A stretch of 64,000 bases of DNA, taken from Pseudopedobacter saltans DSM 12145. Its GTDB lineage: Bacteria > Bacteroidota > Bacteroidia > Sphingobacteriales > Sphingobacteriaceae. This document shows, in pieces, positions 30,544 through 59,116 of the stretch. The position numbers and the translations under genes are program-made. The notes under the pieces were generated by a model. That model was not told the DNA's origin. It made no database searches and saw nothing but the letters and a program-made list of their open reading frames with translations. The stretch lies in NCBI RefSeq assembly GCF_000190735.1, contig NC_015177.1, positions 4,402,001 to 4,466,000 of the forward strand, given 5' to 3'. How positions within the stretch are numbered: position 1 is the first letter of the stretch; each line of letters opens with the position of its first letter.

Positions 30544-30549
30544 ATAATC

Positions 30550-35080: not shown

Positions 35081-35126
35081 ACAGGACACTACATGATGCC
35101 TTACCTAAAGGAATGAATTATATTTA
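35081..35126 (+). promoter_or_regulatory. Promoter with CAGGA-type direct repeat (shared class, copy 4)
   Basis: ACAGGACAC is followed 10 bp later by ACATGATGC. ATGATGCC starts at 35093, 26 bp before the -7-like box TATATTTA (35119-35126). The layout is that of 7597-7642. The GH2 start codon is 25 bp further on. Confidence 0.55.
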
Positions 35127-35150
35127 GACCAGTAAACCTATATAACAATC

Positions 35151-38018: not shown

Positions 38019-38034
38019 TTCGTATTGGAAGGTG

Positions 38035-39465: not shown

Positions 39466-39484
39466 ATTTATTTAAAGCATAGAT

Positions 39485-40839: not shown

Positions 40840-40864
40840 ACATTATAAACCTAGATCAGTGAGG

Positions 40865-43800: not shown

Positions 43801-45262
43801 TATTAAGTACCTAGAAGTAGCCAATAAAAATGCAGACCGAATGATCAGGTTTGTCAATCAGTTACTTGATTTTCGGAAAATCCAGACGCAGAATTTAAAG
43901 CTTAGAATAGAAAAAGTAGAATTAATAGGATTTATGTCAGGATTGCTTGGGCATTTTGTGGATATTCTGGAAGAAAAGGAAATAGCTTTAAAATTAAGTT
44001 CATCGGCTGAAGAGATTTTTGTATGGTGTGACAGAGACAAAATGGACATTGTCTTTTTCAATATTATTTCTAATGCTATAAAGTTCACTCCTAAAGGCAA
44101 AAAGATCTTTGTGAAATTGGAAAAAAGAGAGGGAAAGGTGTCCGTTCAAATTATTGATGAAGGAATAGGAATAAATATGGATAAAATTGAAGATATCTTT
44201 AAACTTTACTATGCCGGAGATAATCAACAGGATAAGGCGTTTAAAGGGACTGGTATAGGGCTCGCAATTTCTAAAGAGATTGTTAGCCTTCATAGGGGAG
44301 TTATAAAAGCAAGTAAGAACACAGACCAGGGCATGACTTTTACTATCGAGCTTTTAGAGGGGAATTTACATTTTGATACTAATGACCTATTGGATGAAAA
44401 TAAATGGTCCAAGCCAGATGCAAAGCAAATAATTTATGACAGATCTTCATTAAAAGTAGAGGAAACTGATAAAGAACAAAGCAAAGACCAGCTGCCGAAA
44501 TTGCTTCTGGTAGAGGATAATATGGAGTTACGATCCTTTATGGTTGATCAATTTAAAGACACATATAATATAGGTGAGGCAGAAAATGGTAAAGAGGGAT
44601 ATTTAAAAGCGATTGAATTAGTTCCGGATGCAATTATATCCGACGTTATGATGCCGGAAATGGACGGTATACAAATGCTTGAGAAAATAAAAAATGACGT
44701 AGTAACCAGTCATATCCCGATAATCTTATTAACGGCCAAATCAACTATCGAAGATCAAATAAAGGGGTTGTCTTACGGAGCCGATTTCTATGTTACTAAG
44801 CCTTTCCACGCAGATTATATTAAATATTTATTGGAGAATCTTTTAAAAAGCCGCCAACAGGTGGTCGCTAATATTTTAGATAAACCTACGGTTTTAAAAT
44901 TAGAGCCAAGTGAAGTAGTCATAACTTCTAAAGATGAAGCCTTTTTAAGAAATGTTATTCAGGTGGTGGAAGAGAAAATGTCTGATCAGGAATTTAATAT
45001 AGAAACGGTAGCAAATTCTATGGCTATGGGAAGAACTACTTTCTATAAAAAACTGAAGAGTTTAACCAATATGACCCCTGTAGAATTTGTTAGAGATATT
45101 AGATTGAAAAGAGGCAGACAATTATTAGCTACCGGAGAATTGACAGTCAGTGAAATTGCTTACCAAATAGGATTTAACAGCTCCGGATATTTTAGTACAT
45201 GCTTTAAGGAAAAGTATAATATATCTCCATCCGATTATTTAAAAAATGAACACACCGGTTAG
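40865..45262 (+). CDS. Hybrid two-component system sensor/regulator (HTCS)
   Basis: About 1465 residues from the ATG at 40865 (a GTG two codons earlier is possible). In order: signal anchor; a periplasmic sensor of roughly fourteen two-component-propeller repeats (GFIWLGTWDGINRYDG, LWIGTFGGGINLL, NLWIATENGVSRLD); a Y_Y_Y domain (about 840-900); one transmembrane helix (about 903-928); histidine kinase with phospho-acceptor His in ISHELRTP (residue about 953) and ATPase domain with NAIKFTP; receiver domain with Asp in ISDVMMPEMDG (about 1260); C-terminal AraC-type DNA-binding domain ending EKYNISPSDYL. It senses a periplasmic glycan fragment and activates the locus. The 21-bp-spaced direct repeats at 45306, 45558 and 58925 are its likely targets. 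Confidence 0.95.
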   Translation: MKKMKSYCIAIIVLLVCVSQVKGTLLEPKFRHYSTEHGLSHDGVLCIKEDSEGFIWLGTWDGINRYDGNNFKTYKARPGDNSFLKNNKIRDIIEDKIGYLWVKTYDRKVYRFDKAREEFLPVIKSNKGESLEHIFIDKVIPVSNGDVWLTTEDNGVLCVLDKGNGDIDVVNYNSEKSFFGNSNVNFIYEDQQHRVWFGTKNGLICLVKNGKKYVSYLAPKTRSYGSNLNFTKVSSNSNGKLFFSTSNGFLVEYNPEFKAFYAKKVVDADILDILVSKTGNVYLTARKQGLIIYNHIKSSFRYEHDGGNTYYWIYEDRTGNIWLEPEKAGVVLYKPSTQSFYPFVHNKEDNLPYVAKSRQGNDKSFNVFEDANNLLWVCLKGGGFGYYDKNANKLNYFYNNPEEKNKLFTNNIVTAYSDKRGVLWFCTRNGGINKVVFSPNNFEYKQLTKNPSNKFENEVRALFQDSDDKIWITNKLGGLSVYKGEKIEVVDENQNLGSIYCITEDRNKNIWIGTKGQGLLKLQPKNESRTKYKVSRYTNEPGDLTSLSNNQIYSVVEDQTGQLWIGTFGGGINLLIEERGRVKFKNINNSFKNYPKHTFNVIRHIIQGPDKNIWLATTDGILRFNPNENPDYSKFRPTVKIPGDKNSLGNNDVQYLYQSSDNEVWAGTFGGGLNRVINDPKTLNDELKFKVYTKEQGLPNDIILSLVEDNNKNLWIATENGVSRLDIKNELFRNYDTYDGLPRTGLSEAACFRSNKGEIYFGCTNGYISFYPDKIVNEQFPANIAFTGIQLYNKDIDIKEPSSPLKSSINYADNIILNYNQDVLTFEYSVLDYRVPNNVSYAYILEGYDKNWHFVKNQRKATYTKIPPGSYTFRVKTVNNYYFENSPEKSISIKVNNPWWLSGWALLCYIFLSIIFLEIARRIVFTMIRLKNKVVVEERMTELKMQFFTNISHELRTPLTLIVNPLLKLKKTESLSDKGIKYLEVANKNADRMIRFVNQLLDFRKIQTQNLKLRIEKVELIGFMSGLLGHFVDILEEKEIALKLSSSAEEIFVWCDRDKMDIVFFNIISNAIKFTPKGKKIFVKLEKREGKVSVQIIDEGIGINMDKIEDIFKLYYAGDNQQDKAFKGTGIGLAISKEIVSLHRGVIKASKNTDQGMTFTIELLEGNLHFDTNDLLDENKWSKPDAKQIIYDRSSLKVEETDKEQSKDQLPKLLLVEDNMELRSFMVDQFKDTYNIGEAENGKEGYLKAIELVPDAIISDVMMPEMDGIQMLEKIKNDVVTSHIPIILLTAKSTIEDQIKGLSYGADFYVTKPFHADYIKYLLENLLKSRQQVVANILDKPTVLKLEPSEVVITSKDEAFLRNVIQVVEEKMSDQEFNIETVANSMAMGRTTFYKKLKSLTNMTPVEFVRDIRLKRGRQLLATGELTVSEIAYQIGFNSSGYFSTCFKEKYNISPSDYLKNEHTG

Positions 45263-45305: not shown

Positions 45306-45369
45306 GTCTAAAATTGAAATAATTGTGTTAATTTTTAAAACAGAATCTTAGTTACTTATATTAAGTTTG
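45306..45369 (+). promoter_or_regulatory. HTCS-type operator and promoter, site A (drives leader RNA)
   Basis: GTCTAAAATTGAAA at 45306 and GTTAATTTTTAAAA at 45327 form a direct repeat of 21-bp period; the second copy starts 35 bp before the -7 box TAAGTTTG (45362-45369). Sites B and C repeat both distances exactly. It lies in the gap after the HTCS gene and precedes a short two-hairpin RNA. Confidence 0.7.
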
Positions 45370-45375
45370 ATGTAT

Positions 45376-45457
45376 TATATAGTCAACATCCCTGTTGAAT
45401 GTAAATTAATTGGTTTTTAAGTGAGTCAGATACGTCTTTGTACTGACTCATTTTTTT
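45376..45457 (+). ncRNA. Candidate small RNA or attenuated leader, about 80 nt, copy 1
   Basis: Starting about 7 nt after the -7 box, the transcript would hold a 6-bp hairpin with a TCCC loop (TCAACA 45383-45388 with TGTTGA 45393-45398), a linker containing AATTGGTTTTT, and a second hairpin (TGAGTCAG 45422-45429 with CTGACTCA 45443-45450) followed by seven Ts. The same two hairpins and linker occur at 58995-59066. The T-run makes this copy look like a self-terminating small RNA, or a conditional attenuator ahead of the SusC gene. Confidence 0.6.
45421..45457 (+). terminator. Rho-independent terminator of the candidate small RNA
   Basis: An 8-bp stem TGAGTCAG/CTGACTCA, extended by an inner TAC/GTA helix, is followed by T7 (45451-45457). 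It would end transcription from site A and any read-through from the HTCS gene before the SusC promoter at 45614. Confidence 0.75.
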
Positions 45458-45557
45458 ACTATGAGACTGGCTTTTAATAATAATGGCTTTTAGTATTTAT
45501 TACTTTCCAGAAAAAACAGTCTTCATACACATCTACGATATATTATTAAGCCATGTT

Positions 45558-45621
45558 GTCAATTTTTAAAGGTTTTTCGTCAATTTTTAGAAGCAAAAGA
45601 ATCACTACAGCTATAAGTTTG
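45558..45621 (+). promoter_or_regulatory. HTCS-type operator and promoter, site B (drives SusC at 45794)
   Basis: GTCAATTTTTA occurs at 45558-45568 and 45579-45589, an exact 11-bp direct repeat of 21-bp period. The second copy starts 35 bp before the perfect -7 box TAAGTTTG (45614-45621). Its right end reaches the -33 region, the position of an activator touching polymerase. The SusC start codon is about 170 nt downstream. Confidence 0.75.
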
Positions 45622-45793
45622 TGTAACCAAGTTAAAGCTTGGAACCTATTAAAAAAGATAATAGTTAAATAATACCTGGCAAAGCGAGTATGAAAAGATG
45701 ATAGAAAATTAAAGCAAAAAATAACAGTATTAAGTTAACCATTATAACAAAGCCGTACCATAAGGTATTTTATTATAGTAACCTAAATTAATT

Positions 45794-48700
45794 ATGAAAG
45801 AAGAACTAAAAAAAATCTCATTGAGATTGCCTCTGTTTTTGTTATTTCTTTGTTGGTGTACGCAGTCATTATTTGCGCAAAATACAAGAAAAATAACTGG
45901 AACTGTTGTAGAAGCTAATGGAGAACCGCTTATTGGAGTTTCCGTTAAAGTAACAGGAGAAAAGCAAGGTGTTATGACAGATGTTCAAGGTCATTTTTCT
46001 CTAAATGTAAAGCCAGATGCTATTATAGAGATTAGTTATATAGGGTATGAACCGCAAAAAATTAATACTGCGGATAAGACTTCCTTTAACATTGTAATGA
46101 AAGAAAATACGGACTTGCTGAATGAAGTTGTAGTTATAGGCTACGGAGTAGCAAGGAAGAAAGATCTAACGGGCTCTAGCGCTTCTATCAAAGGCTCGGA
46201 TATTGCAAATATACCCGTAACAACCGCCGCTCAGGCCATTACAGGTAAAATAGCCGGGGTAAATGTTGTAACGCAAAGTGGCGCACCTGGTGCAGATATT
46301 AATATTCTGGTACGCGGGGGGACGTCCATTACACAAAGTACAAAGCCACTTTATATAGTAGATGGCTTTCAGATGGACGATGCGCTTCGCAATATTGATA
46401 TTAATGATATCGAATCTATCGATGTAATGAAAGATGCATCTGCAACAGCGATTTACGGAGCCAGAGGTGCAAATGGTATCATTTTAATCACGACAAAATC
46501 AGGCAAAGCAGGAAAGACTACTGTTAACTACAACACTTATTACAGTTTCGAAAAACTGGGTAAAAAATTAGATATGTTAGGAGTAGAAGACTATGTGAAA
46601 TATCAGTATGAGTATCAGATATTAAGAGGGCAGGAGAACAACTTTGCCTCCTATTTTGGAGGTAACGTAACTGATCCAAACTTTTTTACAGGAGCTTACG
46701 CTCGTATTGCGCAAGATTACGGAAATCGAGAGGGAATAGATTGGCAGGGTTTGATGTTCGGAAGTACAGCAATCATGCAAAACCATAATGTTTCTGTATC
46801 CGGTGGGACAGAAAGAACAAAAGTTTTAGTGAATTATAATTTTACCGGGCAAGACGGTGTTTTAGCTAAAACAGGATATCAGAAAAACAGCCTTCGTTTA
46901 AAGATTAATCATGAATTGTACAAGGGAGTTCGATTTGATGCCAATGTAGGATTAAACAGCAGTAACATAGAGGGCGGAGGTTCTTTAGGTGGACGACTAA
47001 AAATGGCGCTATTGCAACCGCCAACAGGAGGAGTAAGATTTACAAACGAACAAATGATTGGATCGGATATTCGCGATCAAATGTTGGTATATGATAGCCA
47101 ATACGATATCTCTAATCCTATCATTACTAACGATGCAATTAATCAAACAAGATATACCAGACAGCCTACAGTGAATGCTGCTTTGGAAATAGACATTCCA
47201 TGGGTGAAAGATTTAACATTCCGTACCGCAGGTAGTTATTTCTGGCAACAGGTTCGTAGTGATTACTTCGATGACGGACGCACGTCCGCGGCTAAAGAAA
47301 AGCAAGGACCTTATGGAAGCAGAAATAATAATGAGAAATTGACAAAACAGATTGCCAATACTTTAACATACAAAAAGACTCTGGCAAACGCGCATAATTT
47401 TAATGTTATGCTAGGCCAGGAGACTTGGTATACAGAAAGTATGAAATTGGATAATGACTATCTTAAATTTCCGCAGGATAATTTCGGGTTAAATAATACC
47501 TCGATGGCAGGGCAGCAAATAACGGAGTCCGGTCAGGGGAAAGAAGGGATCGTTTCAGTTTTTGGTCGCTTAATGTACAACTACAGAGATAAATATTTAC
47601 TTACGGCAACTGTACGCGGCGATGGATCGTCTAAGTTTGCTCAGGGGAATCAATGGGGTACATTATCTTCTGCATCGGCTGGATGGCGCGTTTCAGAAGA
47701 AGATTTTATGAAAGATCTTACTTTTATTAATAGCTTAAAAGTACGTGGAGGTTACGGTATTACAGGGAATAGTAATATTGACGACAACATGTATGTTACA
47801 CAGTATCAGGGGGGCAGATATTGGGTTGGGCAGTCAGAAATACCCGCTTTGGTACCTCAAGGTACGTTAGGGAATCCAAATTTAGTTTGGGAAAGAACTC
47901 AATCTACTAACCTGGGACTGGATTTGTCTTTATTCAAAAGCCGTTTCAATTTAACATTTGACGTATACAATAATCTTTCTGATAACTTACTGATTAAAAA
48001 CGGAATTGCGAAATCTTCGGGATATAATGATCAGTTTCAGAATATAGCATCTATCCAAAATAGAGGTTTAGAGTTTATAATTAATACTGTGAATGTAAAA
48101 GCAGGTAGTTTCGTATGGAGGACAGATTTAAATATGTCTTTTAATAAATCTAAGGTGAAAAAACTATACGGAGACGTGGGTAAATATATGATCACCAGTG
48201 TAGATAGCCGTATGGAATTTATAGTTCGTGAAGGGGAGTCTCTCGGCCAATTTTATGGGTTTAAATATGGGGGGCTTTACACAACCGATGATTTTAACCA
48301 AAATCCGGATGGATCGTATTCTCTTAAAGCAGGTGTACCTCGTAAAGGTGGCTTGAATGCAACTCAGGTTGCAGGGATAAAACCCGGAGATATCAAATTT
48401 ATCCCTGTTACAGGGCAAACAGACAGTAATGGAAATCCTATTTGGAGTGAGCAGGACAGAACTGTATTGGGAAGTGCTGAGCCTAAATTCTTTGGCGGTT
48501 TAAATAATACGTTTGCTTATAAAGGTTTTGATCTAAGCGTATTCATGAACTTTAGTTATGGAAACGAGGTATTTAATATGAATACACAACGCTTCGTTGG
48601 ACCTTATTATCCAAATCAGAATGCCACTGCGATTATGACAAACCGTTTCACCCTAATTGATCCGGTTACCGGAAAAGAAACAAAAGACTTAAATCGTTTA

Positions 48701-49048
48701 GCAGCACTTAATCCTAATCAATTTAGCAGCGACGCTATCTGGAGTCTTAATTCTACTAATAAAGAACCTGCGGCTGTAGAAAAGACGGATTATAATCTGG
48801 AAGATGGTTCTTTTCTCCGTATTAATAACATCACGTTAGGTTATACATTACCGACACAGCTAACGAAGAAAGTACATATCAATAATTTAAGAGTGTTCTG
48901 TACGGCAAACAACGTCCATACTTTTACAAAGTATAGTGGTTATGATCCCGAAGTATCGGCTTCTGATAGAATATTGACCAGAGGTATTGATAACTCGGCA
49001 TATCCTAGAACACGCAGTTTTGTAGCAGGATTAAACCTAACATTTTAA
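45794..49048 (+). CDS. SusC-like TonB-dependent transporter (fourth pair)
   Basis: 1084 residues: signal peptide to about 29 (LFAQ), carboxypeptidase-regulatory-like domain (about 32-104), TonB box NEVVVIGYGVARKK (110-123), plug with PLYIVDGFQMDD and IDVMKDASATAIYGARGANGIILITTKSG, and a barrel ending GLNLTF. It is directly downstream of operator site B, so it is the SusC most clearly wired to the HTCS. The following genes encode a PL1 lyase, GH105 and a canonical GH28, which points to homogalacturonan oligomers as its cargo. Its SusD partner starts 21 bp after the stop codon. Confidence 0.95.
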   Translation: MKEELKKISLRLPLFLLFLCWCTQSLFAQNTRKITGTVVEANGEPLIGVSVKVTGEKQGVMTDVQGHFSLNVKPDAIIEISYIGYEPQKINTADKTSFNIVMKENTDLLNEVVVIGYGVARKKDLTGSSASIKGSDIANIPVTTAAQAITGKIAGVNVVTQSGAPGADINILVRGGTSITQSTKPLYIVDGFQMDDALRNIDINDIESIDVMKDASATAIYGARGANGIILITTKSGKAGKTTVNYNTYYSFEKLGKKLDMLGVEDYVKYQYEYQILRGQENNFASYFGGNVTDPNFFTGAYARIAQDYGNREGIDWQGLMFGSTAIMQNHNVSVSGGTERTKVLVNYNFTGQDGVLAKTGYQKNSLRLKINHELYKGVRFDANVGLNSSNIEGGGSLGGRLKMALLQPPTGGVRFTNEQMIGSDIRDQMLVYDSQYDISNPIITNDAINQTRYTRQPTVNAALEIDIPWVKDLTFRTAGSYFWQQVRSDYFDDGRTSAAKEKQGPYGSRNNNEKLTKQIANTLTYKKTLANAHNFNVMLGQETWYTESMKLDNDYLKFPQDNFGLNNTSMAGQQITESGQGKEGIVSVFGRLMYNYRDKYLLTATVRGDGSSKFAQGNQWGTLSSASAGWRVSEEDFMKDLTFINSLKVRGGYGITGNSNIDDNMYVTQYQGGRYWVGQSEIPALVPQGTLGNPNLVWERTQSTNLGLDLSLFKSRFNLTFDVYNNLSDNLLIKNGIAKSSGYNDQFQNIASIQNRGLEFIINTVNVKAGSFVWRTDLNMSFNKSKVKKLYGDVGKYMITSVDSRMEFIVREGESLGQFYGFKYGGLYTTDDFNQNPDGSYSLKAGVPRKGGLNATQVAGIKPGDIKFIPVTGQTDSNGNPIWSEQDRTVLGSAEPKFFGGLNNTFAYKGFDLSVFMNFSYGNEVFNMNTQRFVGPYYPNQNATAIMTNRFTLIDPVTGKETKDLNRLAALNPNQFSSDAIWSLNSTNKEPAAVEKTDYNLEDGSFLRINNITLGYTLPTQLTKKVHINNLRVFCTANNVHTFTKYSGYDPEVSASDRILTRGIDNSAYPRTRSFVAGLNLTF

Positions 49049-49069
49049 TTAACTCTAAGAATTGAAAAC

Positions 49070-50896
49070 ATGAAAAAGATCATCAATATACTTTCATTTT
49101 GTGGCGTTCTATTATTTTTTAGCTCTTGTCAAAAATGGTTAGATATGCCATCCGAATCGAAGTTTGACACTAATACCACTTTTGAAAATGCCAGTAAAGC
49201 TGAAATGGCTGTATTGGGAGCGTATAGTGCTGCTATAAATCAGGAAATGTATTACCAGCTTCTGTCGGGAACAGACGAGTGTATGGCCACAGAAAATAAT
49301 AATAGTAAAGAGATTTTCGCTCGTTATGCCTACGATGCTACCAATACGGTTAACAGTACATATACTGCGATGTATTCAGCTGCAGAAAGGGCAAACAGCT
49401 GTATAAAAGGAATTTCAGCACTGATGTCTAAAAGTTCCGAAGCTGATAAAAAATCTATTGAAAGACTTTTGGGAGAAGCTTACGCCATTCGCGCCTACGC
49501 CTACTTTAATATCGTACGTTTTTGGGGCGATGTTCCTTTTTCGACAATTCCAACAATGGATGCTACCACTTTTACCTTACCTCGTACAGACAGAGATGTG
49601 ATATATGATCAATGTGTATCAGATCTTCAAAAAGCAACCGAGTTAATTCCATGGAAAAAAGAAGCAGGTATACCATCAGAACGCATATCCAAGCAAGCGG
49701 CCTACGGTTTATTGGCTCGCGTGTCGCTTCATGCAGCAGGATATTCATTACGTTGGAATTTGGATACTTATGATCCGGGATCTGTGAAATTAAGCAAAAG
49801 AGCAGATGCAGCGCGTGTTAGAGATCTGTATACAATAGCAAAAGATGCATGCAATGCAGTGATAGGAAGAAAAGAGAACAGCTTGCTGGCTAATTATGAT
49901 AAACTATGGAGAGACCTGATGACGAAAAACTATAATGATGAGTCTATCTGGGAGTTTGGGATGTACGGACCAAATCATCCGGATGTGCGCCTGGCTTATA
50001 CTTCCGGTATTTCTACACCTACAGGCTGTATTTATAGCAAATCAGCTCCACAGATTGCCGCTATGCCGACACTTTATTTTGACTATGAGGATGGAGATCA
50101 ACGCCGCGATGTAACGTTGTGTAATTATGAAATACTAAATGCAGCAGGAACAGCTTCTATGAATGCTTATCCAGGCAGAACAATAGGGAAATATCGTGTT
50201 ACCTGGAAAAAGGACCGCGGTTCAAGTGATTCAAGAAGAGATGTAAATGCACCTATATTACGTTATGCTGATATTTTATTGATGTATGCAGAGGCAGAGA
50301 GTGAGTTGAATGGTGTGACAACTAGTGCAAAAGAAGCATTCGAGAAAGTAAGGTTAAGAGCATTTAAAAATGACGCAAGCAAAATAGGTATAACGCCAAC
50401 GGATCCAAAAGATTTCTTAAATGCAATTATTAAAGAACGCAAATTAGAACTGGCTTTTGAAGGGGTCAGAAGAACAGACCTTGTTCGTTGGGGTGTACAG
50501 TACGAGACCTTAATGACTGAAAAGAGCAAGCTGTTGGATATGGCTAATCATACAGGGAAATATGTAAATATACCAAGGTTTGCGGCTTACAAGCGCTTTA
50601 ATATGACAACTTTCGAAGAACCAACTATAGGATTATCAGCATATAAAACATATTTGACCGAGCCGGATCAAGTAGAAAAAGGTTTACTTCAAACCGGAGG
50701 TTATACGTTGGTAAATCTGTACGGAACTAATGGTGGCGCAATGTTTAATAATAACGAATTGAAGGCTGATGCCGTATGGGTAACCCGTTTCTTTGATGGT
50801 TTAACAAAAAATAAAACGGAATTATTGCCGCTAAGCAATACCATGATGAATGAAAACCCCGAATTAAGAAATCAACAACATCCGTTATATAGATAG
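49070..50896 (+). CDS. SusD/RagB-like surface lipoprotein (fourth pair), 608 residues
   Basis: Lipoprotein signal with lipobox FSSC (Cys20), then QKWLDMPSESKFDTNTTF. SusD landmarks are LLGEAYAIRAYAYFNIVRFWGDVPF (near 130-155), YADILLMYAEAESELNG and the C-terminal IIKERKLELAFEGVRRTDLVRWGV. It captures pectic oligomers at the surface for the SusC encoded upstream. It is followed after 7 bp by a PL1 lyase gene, so lyase and importer are cotranslated neighbours. Confidence 0.95.
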   Translation: MKKIINILSFCGVLLFFSSCQKWLDMPSESKFDTNTTFENASKAEMAVLGAYSAAINQEMYYQLLSGTDECMATENNNSKEIFARYAYDATNTVNSTYTAMYSAAERANSCIKGISALMSKSSEADKKSIERLLGEAYAIRAYAYFNIVRFWGDVPFSTIPTMDATTFTLPRTDRDVIYDQCVSDLQKATELIPWKKEAGIPSERISKQAAYGLLARVSLHAAGYSLRWNLDTYDPGSVKLSKRADAARVRDLYTIAKDACNAVIGRKENSLLANYDKLWRDLMTKNYNDESIWEFGMYGPNHPDVRLAYTSGISTPTGCIYSKSAPQIAAMPTLYFDYEDGDQRRDVTLCNYEILNAAGTASMNAYPGRTIGKYRVTWKKDRGSSDSRRDVNAPILRYADILLMYAEAESELNGVTTSAKEAFEKVRLRAFKNDASKIGITPTDPKDFLNAIIKERKLELAFEGVRRTDLVRWGVQYETLMTEKSKLLDMANHTGKYVNIPRFAAYKRFNMTTFEEPTIGLSAYKTYLTEPDQVEKGLLQTGGYTLVNLYGTNGGAMFNNNELKADAVWVTRFFDGLTKNKTELLPLSNTMMNENPELRNQQHPLYR

Positions 50897-50903
50897 TACC
50901 AGA

Positions 50904-52250
50904 ATGAAAATATTTCAGAAAGCAGTTAAGGTTAAAATATTACTCATATGCTGTTTGTTGGCTTGCTATTTTAGTCCTGCGGTAGCACAGGTTCTTGCTT
51001 TTCCAACTGCTGAAGGATACGGTAAATTCACTGCTGGAGGCCGTGGTGGCAAAGTTTACACTGTAACCAATCTTAATGATTCCGGAGAAGGGAGCCTTAG
51101 GCAAGCGATTGAACAAAAGGGAGCCAGGATTGTCGTATTTGCCGTAGATGGTACTATTGATTTAAAATCTAAGCTAATTATTAGTAATGACAGTATAACT
51201 ATTGCCGGGCAAAGTGCGCCTGGTGATGGTATATGTTTAAAAGGTTACCCACTATTTGTTAAAGCAAACAATGTAATTATACGCTATATCCGCTCTAGAA
51301 TGGGTGATCTGCATGCTGTAGAAGATGACGCTATTGGAGCACTTCGGGTTAGAGATCTTATCATCGATCATTGCTCGGCATCCTGGTCTGTAGATGAATG
51401 CATGTCTGTGTATAACTCGACGAATGTAACGGTGCAGTGGTGTATAATTAGTCATAGCTTATCCAAATCTGCACATTCTAAAGGGGCACATGGTTTTGGG
51501 GGGATATGGGGAGGTTGCGGAGCGACATTCCACCATAATTTAATAGCTCATAACAGTAGCCGTAATCCCCGCTTTGCTTCTGATGGTTGTAATCCGGTAG
51601 ATTTTAGAAATAATGTCGTATACAATTGGGGATATAAATCTGCTTATGGCGGTGGTCGTGGAAACAAAGTGAACTTTGTAGCTAATTATTACAAACCCGG
51701 ACCTGCTACTTCAGAAGATAAGAAAGCATGGCTTTTAGACCCGGCTGAAGATGGAACTGGAGCCTATTACCTGATGGATAACATTATGGAAGGAAGTGAA
51801 GAAGTCACAACAGATAATTGGAAAGGTATAGGCAAAGAAAAGAGAGAAAAAGCGAATGAACCTTTTCCGTCCATTCCTATTCATCAGGAATCTGCTTTAT
51901 CGGCTTATCATAATGTGTTAGAAAAGGCAGGGGCTAGTTTTCGTAGGGACAGCTATGACAAGAGAGTTGTTGAAGAGGTACGTACTGGAACAGCAAAAGG
52001 AGGAGAAACCTATGGTGGCGGAAATAAAGGGATTATTGATTCGCAAAATGCTGTTGGAGGATGGCCCGAGTTAAAGAGAGGGATTTATCTAAAAGATAGC
52101 GATGGAGATGGAATACCTGATGCCTGGGAAATTAAGCATGGACTTAATCCAAAATCTGCTAAAGACGGCTCAGCATATAACTTAAGTAAAGACTATACGA
52201 ATGTAGAAGTGTATCTGAATTCGTTTGTTGATCATCTTAAGGACAAATAA
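50904..52250 (+). CDS. Pectate/pectin lyase, polysaccharide lyase family 1
   Basis: 448 residues with signal peptide to about 29 (AVAQ). The mature protein starts LAFPTAEGYGKFTAGGRGG and continues VYTVTNLNDSGEGSLRQAIE, the usual opening of the PL1 parallel beta-helix group of Bacteroidota. Downstream hallmarks are TIAGQSAPGDGI, LIIDHCSASWSVDE (calcium-site Asp/Glu region) and SSRNPRFASDG with the putative catalytic Arg. The C-terminus has a DSDGDGIPDAWEIKHGLNP calcium-loop motif and NVEVYLNS. It cuts polygalacturonate or pectin by beta-elimination. No type IX sorting domain is present, unlike the PL1 at 59117, so this one is probably periplasmic or otherwise exported. Confidence 0.9.
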   Translation: MKIFQKAVKVKILLICCLLACYFSPAVAQVLAFPTAEGYGKFTAGGRGGKVYTVTNLNDSGEGSLRQAIEQKGARIVVFAVDGTIDLKSKLIISNDSITIAGQSAPGDGICLKGYPLFVKANNVIIRYIRSRMGDLHAVEDDAIGALRVRDLIIDHCSASWSVDECMSVYNSTNVTVQWCIISHSLSKSAHSKGAHGFGGIWGGCGATFHHNLIAHNSSRNPRFASDGCNPVDFRNNVVYNWGYKSAYGGGRGNKVNFVANYYKPGPATSEDKKAWLLDPAEDGTGAYYLMDNIMEGSEEVTTDNWKGIGKEKREKANEPFPSIPIHQESALSAYHNVLEKAGASFRRDSYDKRVVEEVRTGTAKGGETYGGGNKGIIDSQNAVGGWPELKRGIYLKDSDGDGIPDAWEIKHGLNPKSAKDGSAYNLSKDYTNVEVYLNSFVDHLKDK

Positions 52251-52337
52251 TGTTTAGAAGAAAGATGGGCGCCTTTTGAGAGCGTTTCTCTTTATAAATA
52301 GTAGATATAATTTAAAAAAATTCGAATAGTAAATAAT

Positions 52338-54467
52338 ATGAGAAAAAGTTTTTTGATTGCTCTGCCAGTACTTCTGTTTCTTGCTTGTGGGACAAAAAAG
52401 GTTGATAAAATAGATCGCAATAGCCTGGTGGAAAGAAACAATCCACATGTTACAACATTGGACAGCTTAGCATCGCTTTCTGTAGGAAACGGAAATTTTG
52501 CTTTTACCGTAGATGCGACAGGTTTGCAAACTTTTCCAGAAGCGTATGCTAATGGAATACCGCTTGGCACTCAGTCGCAATGGGGCTGGCATAGTTTTTC
52601 AAATCCAAATCATTACAAATTTGAAGAAACGTTGAAAGAGTATGATTTTAGAGGAAGAAAGGAATTATACTCTGTACAATTTAACGAGCCGGGCAGACAT
52701 AAAGAAGCTGCCGATTGGTATCGTGTTAATCCGCACCGTTTGCATTTAGGAAATATTGGTTTTGAGATTATAAATGAAAATGGCGCACTTGTACCAGCTA
52801 ATGATATACAATCAATAGATCAAACGCTTGACCTTTGGCAAGGTATTATTAAAAGCAAATTTCAGGTTAATTCAAGCCCGGTTGCTGTTGAAACTTCATG
52901 TGATCCGAAATCAGATCAAATAGGTGTTAGAGTAAACAGTCCTTTGATGACAACAGGTCAACTGAAAATAAACTTTAGATTTTCATATCCTACAGGAAAT
53001 CATTCCGATGATGCTTGTGATAGAACTGTGCCTGATAAGCATAAAACAACTATTTTATCTCAAGATACCCATTCGGTAATATTCAAGAGAGAACTGGACT
53101 CTACGGTATATTATGTAACTGTGAAATGGGAGGGTAAAGCAACGGTAACAGAAAAAGAGGCTCATTATTTTACACTTAATCCGGAAGAAGAGAATCTGGC
53201 CTTTACCTGCGAGTTCACAAAAGAAAAACCATTGGAACAAGCTCAATCTGTAGCACAAACCTTTGATGCATCTTCTACGTATTGGCAAAATTTTTGGGAA
53301 CGTGGCGGAGCAGTTGATTTTTCGAAGGCAACCGATAGCAGAGCTAAAGAGTTGGAAAGAAGAGTCGTTCTTTCACAATATTTAATGGCTATTCAATCAG
53401 CAGGTATGTATCCGCCACAGGAGACAGGTTTGACATATAATAGTTGGTTTGGTAAATTCCATTTGGAAATGCATTGGTGGCATGCTGTGCATTTTGCTTT
53501 ATGGAATCGCATTGATTTATTAGAGCGTAGCATGGATTGGTATACACAAGCTTATCCAATAGCTAAATCAATTGCAAAACGACAGGGGTATGATGGCGCA
53601 AGATGGATGAAAATGACAGATCCTTCCGGAGTAGAATCCCCTTCAAAAGTAGGGTCTTTTTTGATCTGGCAACAGCCGCATTTTATTTATATGGCCGAGT
53701 TGATTTATAGAAATAACCCATCTGATGAAGTTATTAAAAAATATGGTTTTCTGGTAGAAGAAACAGCGAAATTTATGGCTTCTTTTGCTGATTACGACCA
53801 ATTGGAAGGACGTTATGTTCTCAAAGGAATCATCGCAGCACAGGAAACTTTAAGAGCTTCAGAAACAATAAACCCGCCTTTTGAAATTTCTTATTGGCAT
53901 TATGCAATGGGAGTTGCGCAAAAATGGAGAGAAAGGGCCGGACAAAAACGTAATCTGGAATGGGATGAACTGATAGATAAATTATCTCCTTTAGCGTCAA
54001 AAGATGGTTTGTACCTGGCTTCTGAAAATGCTGTAGATACTTATATTGATATCCGTTATACCTCGGATCACCCTGCTGTTCTCGGGGCATTAGGAATCTT
54101 ACCGGAGAACAAACTGGTAAGAAAAGATTACATGACAAATACATTGAATTGGGTTCTTGATCATTGGAACTGGGGTAAAACCTGGGGTTGGGACTATCCA
54201 ATGACAGCGATGTGCGCCGCTAGATTAAATGAACCTGCTAAAGCGGTTGATGCTTTACTGATGGATAAGCGAACCAATACTTATTTGGTGAATGGACATA
54301 ATTATCAGGATTCCAGACTGAGAGTTTATTTGCCGGGTAACGGTGGTTTATTAACTGCTGTAGCTATGATGTGTGCTGGTTGGGATGGTAATAAAATAGA
54401 AACGCCGGGTTTCCCTAAAGATGGAACATGGGATGTCAGGTGGGACGGATTAAAACCAATGCCTTAA
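52338..54467 (+). CDS. (alpha/alpha)6-barrel glycoside-hydrolase-like lipoprotein, family not identified
   Basis: 709 residues with lipobox FLAC (Cys17). The N-terminal half is beta-rich (about 30-300), starting with SLSVGNGNFAFTVDATGLQTF, the style of the super-sandwich domain of GH65/GH95-like enzymes. The C-terminal half is helical with conserved aromatic and acidic patches such as TYNSWFGKFHLEMHWWHAVHFALWNR (about 373-398; the Glu in HLEMHWW is a candidate catalytic or binding residue) and DHWNWGKTWGWDYPMTAMCAA. It resembles six-hairpin glycosidases, but I cannot assign a family or substrate. In the middle of a homogalacturonan operon it is likely a surface or periplasmic exo-enzyme. Confidence 0.65.
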   Translation: MRKSFLIALPVLLFLACGTKKVDKIDRNSLVERNNPHVTTLDSLASLSVGNGNFAFTVDATGLQTFPEAYANGIPLGTQSQWGWHSFSNPNHYKFEETLKEYDFRGRKELYSVQFNEPGRHKEAADWYRVNPHRLHLGNIGFEIINENGALVPANDIQSIDQTLDLWQGIIKSKFQVNSSPVAVETSCDPKSDQIGVRVNSPLMTTGQLKINFRFSYPTGNHSDDACDRTVPDKHKTTILSQDTHSVIFKRELDSTVYYVTVKWEGKATVTEKEAHYFTLNPEEENLAFTCEFTKEKPLEQAQSVAQTFDASSTYWQNFWERGGAVDFSKATDSRAKELERRVVLSQYLMAIQSAGMYPPQETGLTYNSWFGKFHLEMHWWHAVHFALWNRIDLLERSMDWYTQAYPIAKSIAKRQGYDGARWMKMTDPSGVESPSKVGSFLIWQQPHFIYMAELIYRNNPSDEVIKKYGFLVEETAKFMASFADYDQLEGRYVLKGIIAAQETLRASETINPPFEISYWHYAMGVAQKWRERAGQKRNLEWDELIDKLSPLASKDGLYLASENAVDTYIDIRYTSDHPAVLGALGILPENKLVRKDYMTNTLNWVLDHWNWGKTWGWDYPMTAMCAARLNEPAKAVDALLMDKRTNTYLVNGHNYQDSRLRVYLPGNGGLLTAVAMMCAGWDGNKIETPGFPKDGTWDVRWDGLKPMP

Positions 54468-54473
54468 CGAAAT

Positions 54474-54619
54474 AATGAAGCTGTTTAAAAAGGTTCTCGA
54501 ATACTAAAAAACGCGTCATTGCGAGGAAGTATGACGAAGCAATCTGCGTTTTTGGTATCATTAGATTGCTTCGTTACCTCGCAATGACGATGATGTTTGG
54601 CTTTTTAGACAGCTTCATT
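54474..54619. repeat. 146-bp nested inverted-repeat element (MITE/REP-like)
   Basis: Outer arms of 19 bp (54474-54492 and 54601-54619, one mismatch that still pairs as G-U) enclose inner arms at 54514-54545 and 54563-54589 that share CGTCATTGCGAGG and ACGAAGCAATCT; the left inner arm has 5 extra bases. The whole would fold into one long hairpin. Repeats with a CGTCATTGCGAGG core are known from many genomes as intergenic elements. It fills the 180-bp gap between the lipoprotein and GH105 genes inside the operon. Confidence 0.8.
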
Positions 54620-54647
54620 CATATTAGCTAGAACCGAAATTAAGCCG

Positions 54648-55805
54648 ATGATGAAAAAGATATTCTTATTAGTTGTTTCCTTATTAAATATACAGATTGC
54701 ATTTGCACAGAAAGTTGGGATGTTATTTGCCGATTCGGAGATGAAGCGATTTCCTGAAGCCTGGCAGTTAGATCATGGAAAGCGACTATATTTTGGTTAT
54801 TCACAGGGAGTTGGTTGTATGGCCATGTTACAGGTTTGGAAAGAGACTAAAAACCAAAAATACTTTGATTATGTTGAAAAGTGGGCTGATACAATAATCA
54901 ATAACAATGGAGAAATCCATTTATACAAAGTAGAAACTTATAATGTAGATTATATTAATCCTGGGAAGATATTATTTGACCTTTATAAAGAAACTGGCAA
55001 AGAAAAATATAAACTCGCGATGGATTTATTGGTAAATCAACTTAAAAATCATCCGAGAACATTAGAAGGTGTTTTTTGGCATAAACTGATATATCCTCAC
55101 CAGATCTGGCTTGACGGGTTATACATGGCCGACCCTTTTCTGGCGCAATATGCCTTCACCTTTAGTCAGCCCGAATGGATAGACGATGTAATTAATCAGT
55201 TTTTGGTAACAGCTAAAAGAACTTATGATTTTAAAACCGGGCTTTATTACCATGCTTACGACGAAAGTCGCCAACAATTATGGGCCAATAAAATAACTGG
55301 TCACTCTCCAAACTTTTGGGGAAGAAGTATTGGTTGGTGGTATATGGCCTTGGTTGATGTGCTTGATTTTATTCCAAAAAATCATCCAAGAAGAGCAGAT
55401 CTAATCAAAATTGTACAAGATTTAGCAGATACTTTACCAAAATATCAGGATAAAAACGGATTGTGGTATCAGGTTCTGGATAAACCAGAATATCCGGGAA
55501 ATTATCATGAAGCTTCTGTCTCTTCTATGTTTATGTATGGGTATGCTAAAGCTGTTAAAAAGGGATATTTAGATAAAAAGTATTTGGCAATAGCGGAAAA
55601 AGCCTGTCAGGGCATTATGAAAGATCTGATTGTGAAAAATCCTGACGGTACACTTACGTTGACAAAATGTTGCGCCGTTGCCGGATTGGGCGGGCATCCT
55701 TACCGCGACGGAAGTATAGCTTATTATGTTAATGAACGTGTTAGGGATAATGACTCTAAAGCGACAGGCCCATTTATTATGGGATGTTTATATCTTGGAA
55801 AATGA
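54648..55805 (+). CDS. Unsaturated rhamnogalacturonyl/galacturonyl hydrolase, GH105
   Basis: 385 residues, signal peptide to about 21 (AFAQ). An (alpha/alpha)6 barrel with GH105 motifs: RFPEAWQLDHGKRLYFGYSQG, HQIWLDGLYMADPF with the presumed general acid D156 (equivalent to the YteR active-site Asp), YYHAYDE with H202, NFWGRSIGWWYMALVDVLDF and GLWYQVLD. It removes the 4,5-unsaturated uronic acid left at the non-reducing end of lyase products, by hydration. It therefore acts directly downstream of the PL1 lyases in the pathway. A second GTA-less ATG follows the first immediately (MMKK), so the start may be either. Confidence 0.9.
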   Translation: MMKKIFLLVVSLLNIQIAFAQKVGMLFADSEMKRFPEAWQLDHGKRLYFGYSQGVGCMAMLQVWKETKNQKYFDYVEKWADTIINNNGEIHLYKVETYNVDYINPGKILFDLYKETGKEKYKLAMDLLVNQLKNHPRTLEGVFWHKLIYPHQIWLDGLYMADPFLAQYAFTFSQPEWIDDVINQFLVTAKRTYDFKTGLYYHAYDESRQQLWANKITGHSPNFWGRSIGWWYMALVDVLDFIPKNHPRRADLIKIVQDLADTLPKYQDKNGLWYQVLDKPEYPGNYHEASVSSMFMYGYAKAVKKGYLDKKYLAIAEKACQGIMKDLIVKNPDGTLTLTKCCAVAGLGGHPYRDGSIAYYVNERVRDNDSKATGPFIMGCLYLGK

Positions 55806-55855
55806 TAAGCCCACACTTTTATACCATAAATAATAATCCTTTAAAACTTGATTAC

Positions 55856-57520
55856 ATGAAGAAGATATTATTGTTAGCATTAACGTTTTTTATCGCTGGC
55901 GGAATATATGCGAAAGATCGCTATGACTATCTGTATGACAATTTACCGTTTAGTATGCCGAAGCTGGCAATTCCAAATTTTCCGGATAATAAGGTGAAAA
56001 TAACTGATTTCGGAGGAATAGGCGATGGGATCTATTTAAATACACAGGCGTTTAGTAAGGCCATTGATGCACTTTCTGCAAAAGGAGGTGGAATGCTGAC
56101 AGTACCTGCAGGAATATGGCTAACTGGTCCTATCCAGTTTAAAAGTAATATCAACCTACATTTAGAAGACAGAGCGATTATCTTGTTTTCGCCTGATAAA
56201 AACCTGTATCCTATCGTAGAAACGTCTTTCGAAGGATTGGATACCAGGCGTTGCCAATCTCCTATTTGGGGTAAAAATCTAACAAATATTGCTATTACAG
56301 GAAGTGGAGCAATTGATGGTAACGGACAATTTTGGAGACCTTTGAAAAAGCAGAAAGTAACAGAAAGTTTTTGGAAAAAGACGGTATCAGGTGGTGGTGT
56401 ATTTAAGCGCAGTGATTATTGGATGCCCTCTGCACAATATTTACATGGCGACACCATTAGCGATATGAACGTTCCAAGGCATTTTAAAACTGATGAAGAA
56501 TGGCAGTCGGTACGCGATTTTTTACGTCCTGTTATGGTAAGTTTCAGAGAATGTAAAAATGTGTATCTCCAGGGAGTGATTTTTCAGAACTCCCCCGCAT
56601 GGAATATTCATCCATTAATGTGTGAAAATGTTATTATAGACGGAATTCAGGTACGCAATCCGTCTTATGCACAAAACGGTGATGGTCTGGATCTGGAATC
56701 CTGCAAGAATGTAATTGTGGTGAATAGTTCTTTTGATGTTGGAGACGATGGAATTTGCTTAAAATCCGGAAAAAATGAGGATGGCAGGAAAAGAGGGATG
56801 CCATGTGAAAATGTGATTGTAGATAATTGTACCGTTTTCAAAGGGCATGGAGGCTTTGTGGTAGGGAGTGAAATGTCCGGCGGGGTTAGAAATATCTCTG
56901 TAACAAATTGCCAGTTCTTAGGAACTGACGTTGGTTTGCGTTTTAAAAGCAACAGAGGGAGAGGGGGCGTGGTAGAAAATATTTTTATATCTAATATCAG
57001 TATGATTGATATTGCGACCGAACCACTGCATTTCAATTTATACTATGGAGGGAAATCTGCGGTAGAAGAATTGGAAGATGGGACGAAGATTGTACGTCAG
57101 GAAAAACTCCCTCCTGTAGATGAAACCACTCCAACATTTAAAAATATAACTATAAAAAATGTTTACTGTAGCGAAGCAAATAAGGCTATGTATTTTTATG
57201 GATTACCAGAGCATAATATTAAAAACCTTCAGATAGAAAACTTTGTAGTTCACTCCAATCAGGGAGCAGATATACAGGAATCAGAGAATATATCTTTGAA
57301 AGATATTACCATTTATGCTAAAAAAGGAGCAGCCATAAATTTTGGAAACGTTAAAAATGTAACTCTGGATAATTTAAAAACTGACACTAACTTGAATACG
57401 ATAATTTCAATATCAGGGAATAAGACAGACAAAATATTAATAAACACATTTTACAAGCTCGAACAGATAAAAATTTCCAAAGAAATTTCCGCTAGTAAGG
57501 TTAAAATCCAGAAAAAATAG
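55856..57520 (+). CDS. GH28 polygalacturonase with complete canonical active site
   Basis: I place the start at 55856; an upstream ATG at 55784 would add 24 residues overlapping the GH105 gene and mask the signal peptide (MKKILLLALTFFIAGGIYA). The beta-helix starts VKITDFGGIGDGIYLNT. From the 55856 start, all four GH28 motifs are intact: NGDGLD (D276, D279), GDDG (D297, D298), GHG (H331) and RFK (362-364). An insertion at about 165-215 carries KRSDYWMPSAQYLHGD. The protein of 554 residues is at the long end for the family and resembles periplasmic exo-polygalacturonases that remove galacturonic acid from saturated oligomers. It is embedded between two GH105 genes. Confidence 0.9.
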   Translation: MKKILLLALTFFIAGGIYAKDRYDYLYDNLPFSMPKLAIPNFPDNKVKITDFGGIGDGIYLNTQAFSKAIDALSAKGGGMLTVPAGIWLTGPIQFKSNINLHLEDRAIILFSPDKNLYPIVETSFEGLDTRRCQSPIWGKNLTNIAITGSGAIDGNGQFWRPLKKQKVTESFWKKTVSGGGVFKRSDYWMPSAQYLHGDTISDMNVPRHFKTDEEWQSVRDFLRPVMVSFRECKNVYLQGVIFQNSPAWNIHPLMCENVIIDGIQVRNPSYAQNGDGLDLESCKNVIVVNSSFDVGDDGICLKSGKNEDGRKRGMPCENVIVDNCTVFKGHGGFVVGSEMSGGVRNISVTNCQFLGTDVGLRFKSNRGRGGVVENIFISNISMIDIATEPLHFNLYYGGKSAVEELEDGTKIVRQEKLPPVDETTPTFKNITIKNVYCSEANKAMYFYGLPEHNIKNLQIENFVVHSNQGADIQESENISLKDITIYAKKGAAINFGNVKNVTLDNLKTDTNLNTIISISGNKTDKILINTFYKLEQIKISKEISASKVKIQKK

Positions 57521-57563
57521 AAAGTACTTCGTTAAATTAAAAGTTATAACTAACCAAAAAATA

Positions 57564-58856
57564 ATGAAAAAAGTATTCTTGTTAATGATTGTTTCTACTC
57601 TGGTTAGCAGAGAACTATTTGCTCAGGCAACGCTTAAGGTGGATGAACTGGCAACTACAATTGCTAATCGTATTATTTCAGAAACACCACATACTTTCAT
57701 AAATAAACAGACAAAACAAACTTACACAAGTCTGAAAAATGTTCCGTTTACAATGGATATGAAAGTAAGTAGTAAATACAATGATTGGCATTACACAAAC
57801 GGTGTATTGCAAATTGCGATGTTAGAATTAAGCGAGCTATTAAAAGATGAGAAATATGCGGCGTATGTAGATGAAAATATGCAATTCGTTTTTCAAAAAG
57901 ACAATCTTGATTATTTCAAAAGGCAATTTAATGAGGCATATAAGCAAAGTGGTTGGCGGGGCGTTCGCAATTTATCGTGGCACATGATATCCAGAAATAA
58001 ACGTCTGGATGATAATGGACCTATGGGGGCTAGCTTAATCGATTTGTATATGAAAAAGCCCAATAAGTCATATTTAGAATATATCAATACAACCGAACAG
58101 CATTTGATGGTAGCCGAGCCAAGATTGAAAGACGGAACCATTGCCCGTATCTGGCCTCATGAAAATACCATATGGGCAGATGATCTTTTTATGGCACTTT
58201 CCTTTTTATCGCGTATGGGTAAAATGACCGGAAATATGAAGTACTTTGACGATGCCGCAAATCAGATACTCAACTATCACAAATATTTATGGCATCCCGG
58301 CAAGGAAATATACTATCATTGTTTTCATACAGATGTTAAAGAACATGGTGTTGCACATTGGTCCCGGGCAAATGGGTGGATGCTTATGGCAAAAGCCGAT
58401 TTATTAACTGTACTTCCTAAAGACCATCCTAAAAGAGTGGCATTAATAGAAAACTACAATGCCCAGATAAAAGGAATTCTTCAATATCAGGGAAAAAGCG
58501 GATTGTGGTATCAGGTATTAGATAAAACAGATTCGTATGAAGAGATTACCGGAACAGCCATGTTCGTTTTTGGTATCGCAAGAGGTGTAAGAGAAGGCTG
58601 GATCAATAAAGATTATATCTATGCCGCAGAACAAGGGTTGAAAGGTATGAATACAAAAATGACTGACAAGGGGGATATTACCAGCATATGTGTCGGGACA
58701 GGAATTATGCCTTCATTAACATTCTATTACAATCGTCCTACTCAGGAAAACGATCCTATGGGCGAAGGTCCGGTATTGCGGGCATTGGTAGAAATGGCTA
58801 AGGCCAAAAGATACACGGAAATCTCTGCCGATGACCAGTACGATAAAATTAAATAG
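57564..58856 (+). CDS. GH105-like unsaturated uronyl hydrolase, second member
   Basis: 430 residues, signal peptide to about 20 (LFAQ). Motifs correspond to those of the GH105 at 54648: WHYTNGVLQIAMLELSELL, WPHENTIWADDLFMALSFLSRMG with presumed general acid D206, YYHCFHTD, HWSRANGWMLMAKADLL and GLWYQVLDKTDSYEE. The sequence is diverged and has a longer N-terminal segment, so the two enzymes probably prefer different unsaturated ends (galacturonan versus rhamnogalacturonan). That division of labour is inference. It is the last gene before operator site C. Confidence 0.87.
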   Translation: MKKVFLLMIVSTLVSRELFAQATLKVDELATTIANRIISETPHTFINKQTKQTYTSLKNVPFTMDMKVSSKYNDWHYTNGVLQIAMLELSELLKDEKYAAYVDENMQFVFQKDNLDYFKRQFNEAYKQSGWRGVRNLSWHMISRNKRLDDNGPMGASLIDLYMKKPNKSYLEYINTTEQHLMVAEPRLKDGTIARIWPHENTIWADDLFMALSFLSRMGKMTGNMKYFDDAANQILNYHKYLWHPGKEIYYHCFHTDVKEHGVAHWSRANGWMLMAKADLLTVLPKDHPKRVALIENYNAQIKGILQYQGKSGLWYQVLDKTDSYEEITGTAMFVFGIARGVREGWINKDYIYAAEQGLKGMNTKMTDKGDITSICVGTGIMPSLTFYYNRPTQENDPMGEGPVLRALVEMAKAKRYTEISADDQYDKIK

Positions 58857-58924
58857 AATTAATAATATCTGTTTTCCTTGTTAATTATTTATAAAAGTTG
58901 ATTGATTATCAAAAACTTATTGAT

Positions 58925-58988
58925 ACCAAAAATTGGAATGAATTCACCAAATTTTGGAAGCCATTTCTATAAGTTAAAATTAAGTTTG
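58925..58988 (+). promoter_or_regulatory. HTCS-type operator and promoter, site C (drives the secreted PL1 gene)
   Basis: ACCAAAAATTGGAA at 58925 and ACCAAATTTTGGAA at 58946 form a 14-bp direct repeat (12 matches) of 21-bp period; each copy is also nearly palindromic. The second copy starts 35 bp before TAAGTTTG (58981-58988). Geometry is identical to sites A and B. Confidence 0.75.
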
Positions 58989-58994: not shown

Positions 58995-59066
58995 CTTTTA
59001 TAAATCAACAGCCCTGTTGAATATGAGTAAATTGGTTTTTGTGAGTCAGTATTATTTCTGGCTCAC
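58995..59066 (+). ncRNA. Conserved two-hairpin leader RNA, copy 2 (5' UTR of the secreted PL1 gene)
   Basis: Hairpin 1 is TCAACA (59005-59010) with TGTTGA (59015-59020) around a GCCC loop; hairpin 2 is GTGAGTCAG (59041-59049) with CTGGCTCAC (59058-59066). Between them is AAATTGGTTTTT, as in copy 1. One base of hairpin 2 differs from copy 1 but keeps a G-U pair, and the loops differ in sequence, which supports a conserved structure. No T-run follows; the start codon of the lyase is 50 nt downstream. Confidence 0.6.
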
Positions 59067-59116
59067 ACTTCTCACGAATATTCTAAGGGTTTTATAAATC
59101 TATTCAATAAAAAAAC

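What the first reader, a model, noticed from the sequence alone, without database searches (positions are those of the whole stretch)
45306..58988. Three identical-geometry operators: 21-bp direct repeats 35 bp upstream of TAAGTTTG
Sites at 45306/45327, 45558/45579 and 58925/58946 each consist of two copies of a loose RYYWAWWWTTRRAA element with a start-to-start distance of exactly 21 bp. In all three the second copy begins exactly 35 bp before an identical TAAGTTTG -7 box (45362, 45614, 58981). Seen directly; the agreement in two independent distances is hard to explain by chance in AT-rich DNA. AraC-family activators bind direct repeats two helical turns apart next to the -35/-33 region, and the window encodes an intact AraC-type HTCS at 40865-45262, so these are its probable targets (inference).
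Basis: partly seen in the sequence, partly recalled or inferred. Interest (0 to 1): 0.78.

Follow-up and report, generated by a model that had tools for sequence, protein, structure and literature searches.

The report
Pectin-sensor operators upstream of PUL promoters
Three matching DNA sites in a soil bacterium are very probably the landing pads by which its pectin-sensing regulator switches on pectin-degrading genes; the layout is an already described kind, seen here with unusual clarity.

Summary
It is not chance. No such pair appears in 60 shuffles of the window, and a model built only from relatives' sites ranks the window sites 1st, 2nd and 4th in the 4.6-Mb genome, which by exact size is Pedobacter (Pseudopedobacter) saltans.

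Across Sphingobacteriaceae the same pair, spaced 21/35-36, lies before susC, pectate-lyase and GH28 genes. It tracks the HTCS: 13 of 13 genomes with the SusD ortholog and this HTCS have it, 0 of 20 without this HTCS do. A scan given no motif finds repeats almost only at 21 bp. A sister HTCS group with another second recognition helix has the same geometry but elements ending ACC.

The layout was predicted for Bacteroides HTCSs in 2013 (direct repeats, average 21 bp). Added here: the locked distance to the -7 box, Sphingobacteriaceae, the helix/element correlation, and signs that site 1 is a promoter stranded when its lyase gene moved.

The parts
40859..45262 (+). HTCS: Reg_prop/Y_Y_Y periplasmic sensor, HisKA, HATPase, REC (SHIP motif at residue 1284, counted from the GTG), AraC-type HTH_18 at residues 1385-1462.
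45306..45369 (+). Site 1: elements 45306-45319 and 45327-45340, -7 box 45362-45369; the weakest site, probably a stranded promoter
45376..45459 (+). Leader after site 1 (start inferred): 5' hairpin, then hairpin plus U-run like an intrinsic terminator; about 84 nt; homologous to the leader after site 3. The consensus terminator scan (loop 3-8) did not list it.
45558..45621 (+). Site 2: elements 45558-45571 and 45579-45592, -7 box 45614-45621; likely promoter of the susC operon; best match in the genome to the relatives' model
45794..50896 (+). susC (45794-49048) and susD (49070-50896), the first genes of the predicted target operon
50904..58856 (+). Rest of the predicted operon: pectate lyase relative (50904), unknown (52338), GH88 (54648), GH28 (55784), GH88 (57564). 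A 180-bp gap at 54468-54647 may divide it.
58925..58988 (+). Site 3: elements 58925-58938 and 58946-58959, -7 box 58981-58988; likely promoter of the pectate-lyase-like gene
58995..59070 (+). Leader after site 3 (start inferred), two hairpins when folded to 59075, no U-run; would run on into the gene at 59117
59117..63376 (+). T9SS-tailed protein with laminin-G domains; its residues 8-464 are 35% identical to the pectate-lyase-like ORF at 50904

Best explanation
The three sites are operators of the HTCS encoded at 40859-45262. In the inferred mechanism, pectin oligosaccharide in the periplasm activates the sensor kinase; the receiver domain is phosphorylated and frees the AraC-type DNA-binding domain. 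The two DNA-binding domains of the HTCS dimer then sit head to tail on the same face of the DNA, one per 14-bp element, two helical turns (21 bp) apart. The downstream element ends 21-22 bp before the TANNTTTG -7 box, where a -33 element would lie, so the HTCS probably recruits RNA polymerase by contact (class II activation) at promoters with no consistent -33 box. Site 2 drives the susC/D-pectate lyase-GH88-GH28 operon; site 3 drives the secreted pectate-lyase-like gene. Site 1 is probably the old promoter of that lyase gene, left behind when the gene moved. Shown: sites, geometry, conservation, co-occurrence with the HTCS, position before a -7-like box. Inferred: binding, ligand, activation, transcript starts, site 1's history.
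For: (1) Geometry conserved: window plus 38 loci gave 23 hits over 1000 gap/distance cells, 16 at 21/35 and 4 at 21/36, counting the three window sites and one duplicate (L159/L160). (2) Twenty loci chosen by HTCS only: 10 hits, 6 at 21/35, 3 at 21/36, 1 at 20/35; the nine lie in 8 of 20 loci. (3) Repeat scan given no element, upstream of genes in 32 loci: 34 boxes at gap 21, 3 at gap 20, 1 at gap 29, none at the other 15 gaps. (4) Model R1, made from 35 relatives' sites without the window, ranks the window sites 1, 2 and 4 genome-wide (150 of 8125 first-look candidates were scored); rank 3 is inside a susC-like ORF. (5) Sites follow the HTCS: 13/13 against 0/20 genomes. (6) HTCSs with K/R in the second helix have 21-bp repeats with a different 3' end. 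(7) First recognisable gene downstream: susC at 14, pectate-lyase type at 15, GH28 at 3 of 45 sites. (8) Published HTCS motifs have this structure. (9) Bacteroides -7 consensus TAnnTTTG; -33 motif not identified in F. johnsoniae (PMC7366714); TTTG in the spacer in only 6 of 45 sites.
Against: No binding, footprint or start-site data. L218 (same genus, same helix type) shows no site in 20 kb. By the strict rule only 8 of 20 HTCS-chosen loci have a site, by the relaxed rule 14 of 20. Niastella (L079, HTCS 40%) and Prevotella (L080) have none. Site 1 is weak (16.8 bits, E 0.03 genome-wide). At 12 of 45 sites no gene like those of the window PUL follows within 2.6 kb, and at one more susC only at 1.98 kb. 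The rest of the PUL in the window (24769-40807) has no site. Genomes are related, so 13/0/0/20 is not 33 independent trials.
Confidence: 0.9

Rival explanations
1. The pairs are operators of another regulator of the pectin genes (a stand-alone AraC protein, or one of the other HTCSs), not of this HTCS.
For: No binding data; related AraC-type domains could read similar AT-rich direct repeats; the genome has at least nine other Reg_prop HTCSs. In 13 of the 45 sites' loci the neighbour genes differ from this PUL.
Against: Sites are absent beside the nine other HTCSs fetched. Presence tracks this HTCS clade 13/13 versus 0/20, and in 18 of 30 HTCS-centred loci a site has this HTCS as the recognisable gene just upstream. 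The element differs in the sister HTCS group.
Confidence: 0.06
2. Site 1 is a working promoter for an HTCS-induced small RNA of about 84 nt (or an attenuated leader), not a relic.
For: Strong hairpin plus U-run; fold z -5.7 against shuffles. The leader shares 82% identity over 73 columns with the 5' UTR after site 3, so an RNA titrating a leader-binding factor is conceivable. Bacteroides has PUL-linked antisense RNAs such as DonS (PMC7366714, passages).
Against: The leader was found in no other of 301 family genomes. In nine relatives the place after the HTCS holds site plus pectate-lyase gene, so a stranded promoter explains both site and shared leader. The hairpin may simply end HTCS transcripts. 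The terminator scan did not list it.
Confidence: 0.2
3. Chance similarity in AT-rich intergenic DNA.
For: The element is loose and AT-rich; the consensus was fitted to the sites; one unfiltered self-similarity scan did not single out gap 21.
Against: Shuffles, whole-genome ranking, HTCS-chosen loci and the scans given no element on upstream regions.
Confidence: 0.01

Closest known systems
Predicted HTCS operators of Bacteroides (Ravcheev et al. 2013, PMC3878776; abstract and passages seen)
   Same: AraC-type HTCS of a PUL; direct repeat of two conserved sites, average 21 bp between tandem sites; upstream of susC/susD operons; includes rhamnogalacturonan HTCSs
   Different: Different family and element; here the distance to the -7 box is fixed (35-36 bp), which the passages I saw do not state; one HTCS clade was followed through many genomes
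BT4124 and BT4663 HTCS response-regulator fragments (PMC11253607, abstract and passages)
   Same: Same domain order; S/CHIP motif present here; binding to susCD promoter DNA shown there by EMSA
   Different: No experiment for the P. saltans HTCS
Solved HTCS chain 12aw_A (PDB)
   Same: Closest DNA-binding domain by sequence (E 4e-31, residues 8-122 of the 127 searched)
   Different: Has DPKYF in the second recognition helix, the K type, not SSGYF
Class II AraC-family activators (SoxS, Rns and the toxin-coregulated-pilus regulator are domain relatives by sequence; class II behaviour recalled)
   Same: Two-HTH DNA-binding domain, site next to the -35/-33 region
   Different: Fused to a membrane sensor kinase; promoter is the Bacteroidota -7 type

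Membership tests
HTCS operator (Bacteroidota PUL) | Adjacent HTCS with periplasmic sensor, kinase, REC and AraC-type HTH in one chain | tested here: met
HTCS operator (Bacteroidota PUL) | Direct repeat, about 21 bp between copies | tested here: met
   published structure
HTCS operator (Bacteroidota PUL) | Lies upstream of susC/D or other PUL genes | tested here: met
   sites 2 and 3; relatives: 32 of 45 sites. Site 1 has no gene of its own.
HTCS operator (Bacteroidota PUL) | Conserved upstream of orthologous genes together with the HTCS | tested here: met
   13/13 genomes with versus 0/20 without the HTCS
HTCS operator (Bacteroidota PUL) | Bound by the HTCS DNA-binding domain | not testable with these tools
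   needs EMSA or footprint
Class II activator promoter | Activator site overlaps or abuts the -35/-33 region, no good -33 box | tested here: inconclusive
   position fits; TTTG in the spacer in 6 of 45 sites; start sites not mapped
SusR operator | Tandem sites with centres 67 or 77 bp apart | tested here: not met
   spacing here is 21 bp; SusR spacing from PMC3878776

The most novel reading that the evidence does not exclude
A readable recognition code for HTCSs: the second helix-turn-helix reads the promoter-side end of each repeat, and the residues just before the invariant Tyr-Phe (S-S-G here, A/P-K/R in the sister group) set AAA versus ACC there, while the first helix-turn-helix, largely conserved in both, reads the shared TCAATTTT half, all on a rigid 21/35 promoter frame. 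If general, HTCS operators could be predicted from protein sequence and matched to PULs across Bacteroidota.
Probability: 0.3. Interest if true: 0.6.

Novelty: new member of a known kind. Interest (0 to 1): 0.42.

Why it matters
HTCSs control many glycan-use loci of Bacteroidota, but in the papers I saw their operators are mostly predictions for Bacteroides. Here one HTCS clade can be followed through dozens of loci with its operator, promoter distance and target genes, giving a family-wide regulon prediction, a grammar (21 bp, then 35-36 bp to the -7 box) usable for scanning other PULs, and a testable link between one DNA-binding helix and one end of the operator.

Tried and rejected
Chance: rejected. 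SusR-type operator: rejected by spacing. Rfam: no family reached its gathering score in the window. Sigma-70 scan: no more promoter-like sites than in shuffles (50 against 49.5), uninformative for Bacteroidota; its terminator scan did not list the site 1 hairpin. First self-similarity scan, without an upstream-region filter and counting overlapping windows: not in favour of 21 (gap 16: 27, gap 21: 22, gap 20: 18, mainly a TTAG tandem repeat, gap 24: 16); repeated on upstream regions with a complexity filter. Extra targets in trans: the only outsider ranked above a window site (4233643, 20.3 bits) is inside a susC-like ORF, so none is claimed. Weak partial model matches (11-13 bits) occur in three loci without the HTCS, L140, L144 and L150. 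Leader as a conserved riboregulator: not found in 17 other genomes of the genus (E 0.001) or the 300 other family genomes (E 0.0001). Niastella (L079): no strict site; a looser AACC repeat 21 bp apart was seen with a pattern chosen afterwards and not counted. L226, an R-type HTCS, has a site by the relaxed consensus ending ACA, not ACC. The helix/element correlation is one change on the HTCS tree, so it is one evolutionary event, not many. In one search the helix was misread for L223 and HTCS3631 (first YF taken); the true helices fall in the same classes. One search also shows no strict site for L239-L241; the susC operators of those genomes are in L158, L156 and L159.
Full report
WHAT WAS CHECKED. 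The window is bases 4402001-4466000 of a 4,635,236-bp single-contig genome. That is exactly the published size of the Pedobacter saltans 113T chromosome, whose G+C is 36.6% (PMC3236043, passages); the window's G+C is 36.5%. The name Pseudopedobacter saltans is recalled.

SURROUNDINGS. The region is a pectin PUL: GH2, GH28, GH28, HTCS, then susC, susD, a pectate-lyase relative (PDB 9buj, E 5e-69), an ORF with no family match, GH88, GH28, GH88, then a protein with laminin-G domains and a T9SS tail whose residues 8-464 are 35% identical to the 50904 ORF. The HTCS has sensor, kinase, receiver and AraC-type domains and the SHIP sequence that PMC11253607 ties to a receiver/DNA-binding-domain clamp that suppresses DNA binding without phosphorylation (abstract and passages).

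CHANCE AND RANK. Sixty dinucleotide shuffles gave no pair at 21/33-37. A 64-nt sequence model built from 35 sites of relatives, none from the window, ranked site 2 first (42.1 bits), site 3 second (30.3) and site 1 fourth (16.8 bits, E 0.03) in the whole genome; 150 of 8125 first-look candidates were scored, and the third (20.3 bits) is inside a susC-like ORF. The neighbourhoods of the nine other Reg_prop HTCSs found (40 kb each) and two further 20-kb stretches have no such pair.

RELATIVES. SusD relatives were sought in 301 family genomes. The 36 best loci, in 33 genomes, were fetched (two of them, L141 and L150, are cut short by the contig or the request), with Niastella (L079) and Prevotella (L080). 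In the window plus these 38 loci, 23 pairs were found over all gaps 15-39 and distances 20-59: 16 at 21/35, 4 at 21/36, 2 at 28/28, 1 at 24/56 (L159 and L160 carry the same site; L079 and L080 have none). Twenty further loci picked only because they encode a relative of the HTCS gave 10 pairs, 6 at 21/35, 3 at 21/36, 1 at 20/35; the nine lie in 8 of 20 loci. With looser limits the 20 loci gave 15 hits at 21/34-36 against 17 in all 375 other cells together, and 13 SusD loci with the HTCS gave 21 against 30. The final set is 45 distinct sites, 38 at 35 bp and 7 at 36 bp, consensus GTCAATTTTTRAAA-n7-GTCAATTTTTRAAA-n21/22-TANNTTTG; the downstream copy is the better conserved.

LINK TO THE HTCS. 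Of the 33 family genomes with the SusD relative, 13 encode this HTCS (42% identity or more, over 1200 bits), and all 13 have a pair in the 20 kb around susD. Of the other 20, three have a 34-36% HTCS relative and 17 none at E 1e-250; none of the 20 has a pair. Fisher p is 1.7e-9 if genomes were independent, which they are not: seven of the 13 are of one genus, and the six of these in the HTCS tree form one clade. Second susD copies with no HTCS in their 20 kb in G047 and G063 (L154, L152) have no pair.

TEST GIVEN NO ELEMENT. Comparing 14-mers on any gap from 14 to 31 bp, the second copy starting 33-38 bp before TANNTTTG upstream of genes: in 32 loci of the HTCS clade 34 boxes have a repeat at gap 21, 3 at gap 20, 1 at gap 29, none at the other 15 gaps. 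In 9 loci of a sister HTCS group it was 6 at 21, 1 at 20 (the same box as one of the six), 1 at 26. In 20 loci without the HTCS it was 2 at 21, 1 at 14, 1 at 28. In the own-genome regions, distances 33-37, gap 21 had 4 clusters at 3 places (sites 2 and 3 and one other locus at 396182), gaps 22 and 23 one each, the rest none. A cruder first version, without the upstream filter, did not single out 21.

HELIX AND ELEMENT. In the sister group the second recognition helix reads GF.[N/S/D][A/P][K/R]YF instead of GF.S[S/L/A][G/A/P/S]YF, while the first helix is largely conserved. Its sites found without a motif end ACC: upstream copy 5 of 6 against 0 of 36, downstream copy 6 of 6 against 6 of 36. Only 5 of the 9 sister-group loci contribute these six sites; L226 (R) has a relaxed-rule site ending ACA. 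The groups differ by one change on the HTCS tree, so which residue matters is not established.

SITE 1. Nine relatives (L131, L157, L161, L232, L233, L235-L238) have HTCS, site, then a gene like the pectate-lyase part of the 59117 gene. In the window the place after the HTCS has site 1 and no gene, only a leader ending in a hairpin and U-run at about 45459 (not listed by the scan). The lyase-type gene sits at 59117 behind site 3, whose leader is 82% identical (60 of 73 columns) to that after site 1. The simplest history is relocation of the lyase gene with a copy of its promoter. A short RNA made from site 1 is not excluded.

WHAT IS KNOWN. Ravcheev et al. 2013 predicted motifs for 16 of 36 B. 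thetaiotaomicron HTCSs, all direct repeats, average distance 21 bp, read as two monomers on one face two turns apart (PMC3878776, abstract and passages). The kind is therefore known. A find in that paper with terms such as 'transcription start' and 'promoter element' gave no fixed distance to the promoter; its supplements were not seen. My searches for HTCS operators in Sphingobacteria or Pedobacter, or with promoter terms, listed no such work by title or abstract; the library lacks most subscription journals, so this is weak evidence of absence.

VERDICT. Real, well explained, a new member of a known kind, with clean comparative support. I found no wet-lab evidence for this HTCS.

Noticed in passing
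own genome 396182-396249 (L181), upstream of the gene at 396339: A different 21-bp direct repeat (AAAATGGTATAATAG / AAAATGCTATAAAAA), the second copy beginning about 36 bp before TATGTTTG; a second, weaker one near 394157 before the gene at 394265. Possibly operators of another PUL regulator with the same geometry.
   Followed up: partly
54468-54647: 180-bp gap inside the putative operon with a long palindrome (GTCATTGCGAGG...GAAGCAATC and its complement), like a REP-type repeat.
   Followed up: no
45376-45459 and 58995-59070: Two homologous leaders with two hairpins each; one ends in a U-run, the other runs on into a gene; found in no other of 301 family genomes.
   Followed up: yes
24769-40807: A second susC/susD pair (24769, 27983) and the GH2-GH28-GH28-HTCS gene run carry no site of this kind, so their control is unexplained.
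   Followed up: no
G179, G191, G218: These genomes encode relatives of this HTCS of both helix types (L214/L225, L219/L224, L161/L223), so two element types could be compared within one cell.
   Followed up: partly
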